A stretch of 64,000 nucleotides of DNA, taken from NCBI GenBank assembly GCA_032622095.1, contig CP136067.1:50385899-50449898 (forward strand), written 5' to 3'. This stretch comes from Siphonodentalium dalli (lineage: Eukaryota; Mollusca; Scaphopoda; Gadilida; Siphonodentaliidae). This document shows positions 43,301 through 46,300 of this stretch, in pieces (position 1 is the stretch's first letter; the number at the start of each line of letters is the position of its first letter). The notes below the pieces were generated by a model. The model worked only from the letters and a program-made list of their open reading frames with translations, was not told the DNA's origin and made no database searches. Made by a program: the position numbers and the translations under genes.

Positions 43301-46300
43301 TGATCAATTAACACTCTATACAAAATACTCATAGCTGAGTTAAGAAATGTTCAGATAATAAGTTCAACAAACTTGTTTGTTGAACTTATTATTTGAACAT
43401 TTCCCTGCAATAAATAGGATTCCTTCTGCACTTTTATTATCTGTCGTCTGCTTATTTTTCCTGAACACCCCTCCAGATGACTAATAGACCACTCCAGTGC
43501 ATACTGAGTGGGAGAATCCATTAGTGTTGAAAGGGTTAAATTAAAGGTGCTCAATCTGATCAGATGGTCTCCATATCATCAAGATACAACAACAACATTT
43601 CTGCAAAATACGCTTTAGTTATCAGAATCGATTACTTGCAACAAAATAATGCTAACCACTGTCAACTATTGTATCAAATTTCCCAAAACGTGTTGTTTGT
43701 CAACATTTAGTTAAAAGATTATAAGGCCATATTATCACTTGAGTATCACAAAATTTGGCCGTATCACCACTTGATTTTAGAGTTATCCATCTTTATTCGC
43801 AATTTTGTCCGGTCAAATAACAAACTTCAAAAATCGATATCTGATCACTCTGAGCTTTGATGGGTGGGTTCCTCGACTCGAATCATATTTTTACCCCCCG
43901 AAGCTAAGAAATAGTAATTTAGGAGCGTTAATTCGGATAATGCAACTTTAAGAATAATTTGCAATCTTTTTTCTTCACACACACCCTGTTTTACAGTTAA
44001 AACGGGTTTGTGTTTTGATTTTTATGCCCACCCCATTTTACGGTTTGCGTTTTGATTTTTATACCCACCCTGTTTTACGGTTTGATTTTTATACCCACCC
44101 TGTTTTACGGTTTGTGTTTCCAACATTCATCACATGCTCAATTTCATTGATACTCTTGGTCACAAATGATGACAGATCCTGAAAAATAAGAAGAGTTGTT
44201 AAAGATGGTCTATCTCTTCAGGGCCACAATTACAACAACAACATAATTTTTCTTATAAATCCTGATTTCAAGACTATTTTGTGAATAAAAAATAGATAAA
44301 ATTGAAGACTGGGTATATTATATGTCTATAAAGGAATAATATAGCAGTTTATTTCGAATGTAAGATTGTGGTAAACAAGCCTTGTGTCTGTCATTTTCAG
44401 AATGAGGTCCCCAGAGGGAGAATTTAGTGATGCTACCCCGCATAGTGGGCTAGCATCACCAAATTCACCTCTGGGGACCTCATTCTGCTGAGGTGTAAGC
44501 AGAATGAGGTCCCCAGAGGGTGAATTTGGTGATGCTAGCCCGCTATGCGATGCTAGCCCGCTATGCGGGGGTAGCATCACTAAATTCACCTTCTGGGGAC
44601 CTCATTCTGCAAATGACAGACACACTATTTCAAGTCTTGGTGGTAAATCTATAGTTGAAATACAATTTGCCATGATTGAGGTGGTAACAAGATAGAGTTG
44701 TCCTTCTTAGTACGTTTTTGGTATGCTCTGAGTGTTTTTGTGGGGATATCTGTTCTAAAAATAGCCACTTAAACTGTCCCACGGATATGATAAGAAATTC
44801 TAAATAAAACTTATATTAGTTTATAGAAACTTTACTGGACAGGTGTCCTGGATTCATATATTAGGGCCCTGTGAATCGGGTGTTTTCATTTCGAATCGAT
44901 TCTCGAATCAAATCAGGCAAACCATTCGAAATCTCGATTAGAATCATTGTTAATGAGCCAATCAAGTTCAAATACATAGAACTTCGAAGAAACACCTAAA
45001 ATTGACTGGCGAAAACCACCTGGCGATTGTTGATGTTGTGCAAATTATGCTGTTATCTAAACGCCTCTATGCATTTTCTGTGCCTAAGCAATCGTTGAGT
45101 ACAGATAATAGCATACATGCATGAGACAATCAATTTCAACATAGATACGGACAAGTGTACCACCGCGTGATGCCTGTTTCATTTCATTGAATAGCATAGT
45201 ATTTTTCGCTACACTTGCGATGATTGTGTTGCCTGTCGCTTAGATTCAGACTCAAATTTATGCAAATCAAACTAAGATCTCAAATCTGGCATACATGTGT
45301 ATTATGGAATTCCCATTCACGACCACGTGATATGATTCCTGGAACGACACTAGCACACAGCGAATATGTGTATTTTGAAGCACAAACCGCAATGTGGCTT
45401 TAACCCTTTACCCAACAAACCGGCCACAACCGGCCAAATAAAGCTTCAACAGCCTAAAATATCTTCGGTCTGTCTCAATAAAACCATACAAATATGGATA
45501 TCATTGGAACCGGCTCCTTGACCACATTGTGATAGTTACAGTTATACCCTGTGCCAATGCATTCTCTTATATATGCGAGTCGACCATAGGTCGCCTCGCA
45601 TATATAAGAGAATGCATTGGCCTAAAAAAAATCTTTTTTTAACACTTTTTACCATTTTTTCTTACATTCTTTAACAATTTTATAATTTTTAAAGTGTTAA
45701 GCCAATGCATTCTCTTATATATGCGAGGCGACCTATGGTCGACTCGCATATATAAGAGAATGCATTGGCACAGGGCCCTTCTGTTGGGTAAAGGGTTAAA
45801 TTCTTATATAAGACTAGAATCTTTGATTTGAACATGCTCACTGATTGACGATACTCACCCTGACATAAACACCCGTGTCAGGTCGCTCTTTCAGCTCCAA
45901 CCTCTTTGATTGATTTTTTGCGAGAAGGTCTCGTATTTCTTCCTGTGGACAATGAATAGTCATTGAAATGTACCGAAACAAACCAAATTGAATAAAACAA
46001 TGATTTTCGTATATCTTGAACAATACTTCTAATTTCTTTTTGGGTATATGATTCGCAAGGAAAATTTTGTGTCACTTATTTTTGTTATATGTTATTTGAT
46101 ACTAGCTGATGTATCTAGGGATTTCTTTGTGATCGCCTCCGTCTGGGCAGAATATTAGGAGAAAGAAAAATTATTGTTCGATCGGTCCAGAAACATCGGT
46201 ACAGAAACAAGGTCAAGGACATGGACTCACGTGAAATTGGAACCGCCCATATTGATCAAAGTAGGCCTACATACCAAAGCAGTTTTCAAGAATATAACAC

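What the first reader, a model, noticed from the sequence alone, without database searches (positions are those of the whole stretch)
43977..44178. A minisatellite has copied a coding exon end together with its 5' splice site
The last 15 coding bases of KIF3B exon F plus the first 15 bases of the intron form a 30-bp unit. An identical copy follows at once in the intron and two diverged copies come after it. Two decoy donors therefore sit about 30 and 67 bases downstream of the real one. Use of the first decoy would put TAA in frame three codons after the exon and cut the motor just before switch I. The residues set by the repeated part (K-T of NRKTGST) differ from the usual S-V, so the repeat may also have changed the protein.
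Basis: partly seen in the sequence, partly recalled or inferred. Interest (0 to 1): 0.8.

Follow-up and report, generated by a model that had tools for sequence, protein, structure and literature searches.

The report
Tandem repeat copying a splice site
A short stretch at the end of a kinesin-motor gene exon, including the signal where its intron begins, has been copied in tandem into that intron; the copies look like working splice sites but could only yield a truncated protein, and a repeat of this kind has been described before.

Summary
On the minus strand, the end of a KIF3B-like exon (44178-44099) and its 5' splice site (GT at 44098-44097) are repeated in the intron: a 34-bp run recurs exactly 30 bp downstream, and two diverged copies follow. 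The older period is 37 bp, taking in about 21 coding bases. Three decoy donors follow the real one, not two: at +30, +67 and +114. The real donor and three decoys have the four best U1 pairings of 91 GTs scanned, real and first decoy being identical. Using any decoy, or retaining the intron, gives ...NRKTGWV-stop, before switch I; of the four, only the first gives an open frame into exon G. The idea that the repeat changed the protein (K-T for S-V) is not supported: the K-T bases stand in three of four copies, including the outermost, so probably predate the copying. Short-period arrays cover 1.6% of the window; 0.26 hits are expected among the 16 exon boundaries placed, and one was seen. Human IFI6 has a reported minisatellite supplying several splice donors. 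Splicing consequences are untested.

The parts
44099..44178 (-). KIF3B-like exon F (80 nt), codes [26 protein letters not shown] and two bases of a split Gly codon
   Evidence: acceptor AG, donor GT and open join to exons E and G; joined segment best matches human KIF3B 3b6u in the PDB, E 3.1e-86
44097..44098 (-). GT of the real 5' splice site, context CAGG|gtgggtat
   Evidence: of the four donors tested, the only one giving an open frame into exon G
44084..44120 (-). repeat copy 1, spanning exon end and intron start
44089..44091 (-). TAA in frame, intron bases 8-10, met by all decoy-spliced forms and by intron retention
44054..44083 (-). repeat copy 2 (30 bp, identical to the last 30 bp of copy 1); decoy donor 1, GT at 44068-44067
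44017..44053 (-). repeat copy 3 (37 bp, 5 mismatches to copy 1 as cut); decoy donor 2, GT at 44031-44030
43967..44016 (-). repeat copy 4, most diverged, with a 10-bp insertion; decoy donor 3, GT at 43984-43983
43985..44006 (.). inverted repeat in copy 4 (9-nt arms, 89% complementary, 4 nt between) that includes the 10-bp insertion; template-switch origin is inferred
42458..42527 (-). KIF3B-like exon G, carries the switch I segment (NEHSSRSH; name recalled)

Best explanation
A small tandem duplication crossing the exon F/intron boundary of a KIF3B orthologue copied the end of the exon and its 5' splice site into the intron. It began with a 37-bp period (copies 3 and 4, now diverged), and a more recent 30-bp duplication made copy 2, still identical to copy 1. 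The upstream donor is still the working one, because of the four it alone gives an open reading frame into exon G. The three downstream copies look competent but are unproductive: a transcript using any of them meets TAA at intron bases 8-10, and would give a motor truncated before switch I or be removed by nonsense-mediated decay. Shown: the copies, their degrees of similarity, the frames and the stops. Inferred: the order of events, that the first donor predominates, and that decoy products are minor and not selected for.
For: 34-bp exact run at offset 30 against 10, 10 and 11 in three Markov controls; 37-nt family with spacings 37 and 30; copy alignments. Frames and stops for four donors and for retention. 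Conserved exon sequence gives the direction of copying. U1 duplex energies: real donor -11.2, decoys -11.2, -8.5, -7.5 kcal/mol, the best four of 91 GTs in 44175-42600. The unit matched nothing else in the window at E up to 0.1. Base rate: 21 TRF rows of period 15-60, the array itself included, cover 1.6% of the window; 0.26 of the 16 exon boundaries placed expected inside, 1 seen.
Against: No transcript, population or related-species data, so real splice use is unknown. The first decoy equals the real donor over the whole U1-pairing stretch, and decoy 2 (-8.5) pairs no worse than the placed donor of exon G (-8.1), so some decoy use would be no surprise. An assembly error adding copy 2 cannot be excluded.
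Confidence: 0.8

Rival explanations
1. The decoy donors are used at a meaningful rate and lower KIF3B output through a premature stop (an unproductive-splicing switch), perhaps varying with copy number between individuals.
For: Decoy 1 has the same U1 pairing as the real donor and the same predicted accessibility (mean unpaired 0.32 and 0.32). Decoy-spliced forms all stop at the same TAA. IFI6 transcripts are said to use two downstream repeat units as donors (one sentence of PMC4526556).
Against: No RNA evidence here. IFI6 is a different gene in a different setting. Loss of output would usually be selected against in a ciliary motor gene (general knowledge).
Confidence: 0.12
2. The extra G-rich copies help recognition of the real donor, as intronic G-runs or spare U1 landing sites.
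For: Each copy carries GGGTG, four in about 115 nt.
Against: Sequence logic only; the real donor already pairs nearly as well as exon E's (-11.2 against -12.0).
Confidence: 0.05
3. Copy 2 is an assembly artefact, so the repeat is smaller than shown (not exclusive of the others).
For: Copy 2 is identical to copy 1; no reads were available.
Against: Copies 3 and 4 differ from copy 1 by substitutions and a 10-bp insertion, so the tandem structure does not rest on copy 2.
Confidence: 0.05

Closest known systems
Minisatellite providing multiple splice donor sites in the human interferon-induced gene IFI6 (6-16, G1P3): Turri, Cuin and Porter 1995, NAR 23:1854 (paper not held; seen as a citation and as one sentence of PMC4526556)
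   Same: By its title and that sentence, a tandem repeat supplies several splice donors in a row, downstream units as well as the first.
   Different: There, downstream units are said to be used, giving three mRNA species and different isoforms; here use is unknown, every decoy would truncate the protein, and there are about four units of 30-37 bp. I did not see the IFI6 unit or copy number in a call.
Tandem duplication crossing an intron-exon boundary in the potato RdRp gene (PMC4974935; abstract and the Results and Discussion section read)
   Same: A tandem genomic duplication spanning an exon boundary copies working splice signals.
   Different: There the 3' splice site was copied and a new intron, supported by RNA reads, arose; here the 5' splice site was copied and no new intron is apparent.

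Membership tests
Minisatellite with multiple splice donors (IFI6 kind) | tandem units each containing a GT donor, the first being a real exon end | tested here: met
   four units, GT at 44098, 44068, 44031, 43984
Minisatellite with multiple splice donors (IFI6 kind) | transcripts use downstream units as donors | not testable with these tools
   no RNA data for this window
Minisatellite | tandem unit of 15-100 bp (definition as in the abstract start of PMC3618361, listed) | tested here: met
   periods 30 and 37
Minisatellite | copy number varies between individuals (often expected; recalled) | not testable with these tools
   one sequence; no genome held
Intron gain by tandem duplication | duplication yields a new spliced intron with its own donor and acceptor | tested here: inconclusive
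   read from the sequence: the intron between the GT of copy 1 and the AG of copy 2 would be 44098-44070 (29 nt), with an A-rich stretch and no pyrimidine tract before its AG, so unlikely; no transcripts to settle it
KIF3B (kinesin-2) motor gene | motor-domain homology with KIF3B as best match | tested here: met
   3b6u KIF3B 3.1e-86, then KIF3C 2.4e-80, among PDB chains only; Pfam Kinesin 2.6e-58

The most novel reading that the evidence does not exclude
The row of donors is a copy-number-dependent brake on a ciliary kinesin: the more units, the larger the share of transcripts that end before switch I, so that repeat length tunes KIF3B dose among individuals.
Probability: 0.05. Interest if true: 0.6.

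Novelty: new member of a known kind. Interest (0 to 1): 0.28.

Why it matters
It is a compact natural test of how the splicing machinery chooses between identical 5' splice sites 30 bases apart, because only the first gives a working protein. It is also an example of a tandem duplication copying a whole splice site, raw material for new isoforms or introns. For this gene it is probably neutral.

Tried and rejected
Rejected: a dispersed repeat as source of the unit (blastn of 43977-44125 against the window at E up to 0.1 found only the array itself). An intron-to-exon direction (the exon part is conserved kinesin sequence). The GT at 44094 as real donor (TGG|GTATAA, U1 energy -5.4; read from the sequence, it would give TGA as the third codon of exon G). 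A structural difference favouring one donor (mean unpaired 0.32, 0.32, 0.37, 0.23 for the four in order; no clear preference). K-T as a change caused by the repeat: against my reading, four kinesin-2 proteins aligned (KIF3B, KIF3C, OSM-3, the 2vvg kinesin-2) have S-V, A-V, H-V and H-V there, so K-T is unusual among them; KIFC3 has T-T. Of 134 and 148 matching PDB sequences only five each were shown as alignments, so this is a small sample. Against the base-rate argument one may count all 62 TRF rows: 10.7% of the window, 1.72 boundaries expected, 1 seen.

Led nowhere: scans for relatives in genome contigs (137 stretches matched a pattern, none confirmed) and viral contigs (12, none confirmed); Rfam at gathering threshold on the window (0 matches); the 1995 IFI6 paper (not held). 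Literature: led to the IFI6 citation, to the potato paper; others (20 of 1,433 listed; 20 of 24 listed) were looked at by title and abstract start only, and one search listed none. I make no claim that nothing closer is in print.

Full report
What is there. The window holds part of a KIF3B-like gene on the minus strand. Exons placed by homology, AG/GT sites and frame are C 48263-48139, D 46633-46509, E 45942-45859, F 44178-44099, G 42527-42458, H 31650-31558, I 31310-31178 and K 21911-21816. A further exon ([30 protein letters not shown]) lies near 30819 and was not delimited. The joined segment from exons C-G matches human KIF3B best among PDB chains (3b6u, E 3.1e-86; KIF3C second, 2.4e-80) and the Pfam Kinesin model (2.6e-58). 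The first three residues of that query were intron read-through. The organism was not identified.

The repeat. A 34-bp run from 44114 to 44081, 16 bases exon and 18 intron, recurs exactly 30 bp on. Three simulated 64-kb Markov sequences gave longest runs of 10, 10 and 11. Two more copies follow: copy 3 with five mismatches to copy 1 over 37 bp as cut, and copy 4, more diverged, with a 10-bp insertion. The insertion forms an inverted repeat with 9-nt arms and 4 nt between, as a template switch might (inference). TRF gives periods 37 and 30, and the repeat finder a 37-nt family with spacings 37 and 30. The 37-bp unit takes in about 21 coding bases. The simplest history is an older 37-bp duplication followed by a recent 30-bp one (inference).

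Direction and the K-T question. The exon part lies in conserved motor sequence: human KIF3B reads [31 protein letters not shown] there. The exon is therefore taken as the source. The bases AAAACA that code K-T stand in copies 1, 2 and 4; copy 3 has AAAATG. Since the outermost, most diverged copy agrees with the exon, the exon most likely already read K-T when first copied. K-T is unusual among the four kinesin-2 proteins aligned (S-V, A-V, H-V, H-V), while KIFC3 has T-T. That the repeat altered the protein is not supported; a later gene conversion is not excluded.

Splicing. The four GTs are at 44098, 44068, 44031 and 43984. Duplex energies with the recalled U1 5' end are -11.2, -11.2, -8.5 and -7.5 kcal/mol, the best four of 91 GTs in 44175-42600; the placed donors of exons D, E and G score -14.0, -12.0 and -8.1. 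Decoys 1 and 3 lengthen the exon by multiples of three, decoy 2 does not. All three, and intron retention, give NRKTGWV-stop, the TAA being intron bases 8-10; only the first donor gives an open frame into exon G, which codes NEHSSRSH. Decoy use would therefore be unproductive whichever copy is used. Predicted accessibility does not single out the first donor. Whether any decoy is used cannot be said from sequence.

How surprising. Of 62 TRF rows, 21 have a period of 15-60 and together, this array included, cover 1.6% of the window. Among the 16 exon boundaries placed, 0.26 would fall inside such an array by chance and one did; with all 62 rows (10.7% of the window) 1.72 are expected and one was seen. 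A boundary inside an array is thus mildly unusual at most in this repeat-rich sequence.

What is known. A minisatellite providing multiple splice donor sites was reported in 1995 for the human interferon-induced gene 6-16/IFI6. I saw this as a citation and as one sentence of PMC4526556, which says that two downstream repeat units serve as donors and three mRNA species result; the paper itself is not held. A tandem duplication crossing an intron-exon boundary gave a new intron in potato RdRp (PMC4974935; abstract and Results read). By structure the present case is another member of the first kind, with use of the extra donors unshown. It does not look like the second, since the only intron enclosed between copies 1 and 2 would be 29 nt without a pyrimidine tract (read).

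Verdict. Real, and in the main correctly described; one decoy was missed and the protein-change idea is unsupported. Most likely a neutral duplication whose extra donors are silent or make little, unstable RNA.

Noticed in passing
window 44383-44624, 43093-43243, 42584-43027, 40754-41282, 46677-46803 and others: A dispersed palindromic element with ends like CAGAATGAGGTCCCCAGAGGGTGAATTT occurs many times in the window, several copies in the introns around exons F and G; it looks like a miniature inverted-repeat element (inference).
   Followed up: partly
window 43565-43805 and 40469-40684: Two inverted copies (71% alike) of another sequence lie on either side of exon G; 40310-40684 is also 82% like 21981-22379, inverted. 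Inverted copies around an exon could favour back-splicing (inference).
   Followed up: no
window 45399-45799: A 400-bp element 98% identical to 1043-1443 (inverted), with further copies at 2183-2572 and 13359-13751 and a part at 1-256.
   Followed up: no
window 50360-58603: Several separate arrays of a 122-bp satellite unit (CGAGCCCGTGCGACGCC...), some also reported with longer periods such as 244 and 416.
   Followed up: no
window 43985-44006: A 10-bp insertion in repeat copy 4 forms an inverted repeat with 9-nt arms, as a template switch might.
   Followed up: partly
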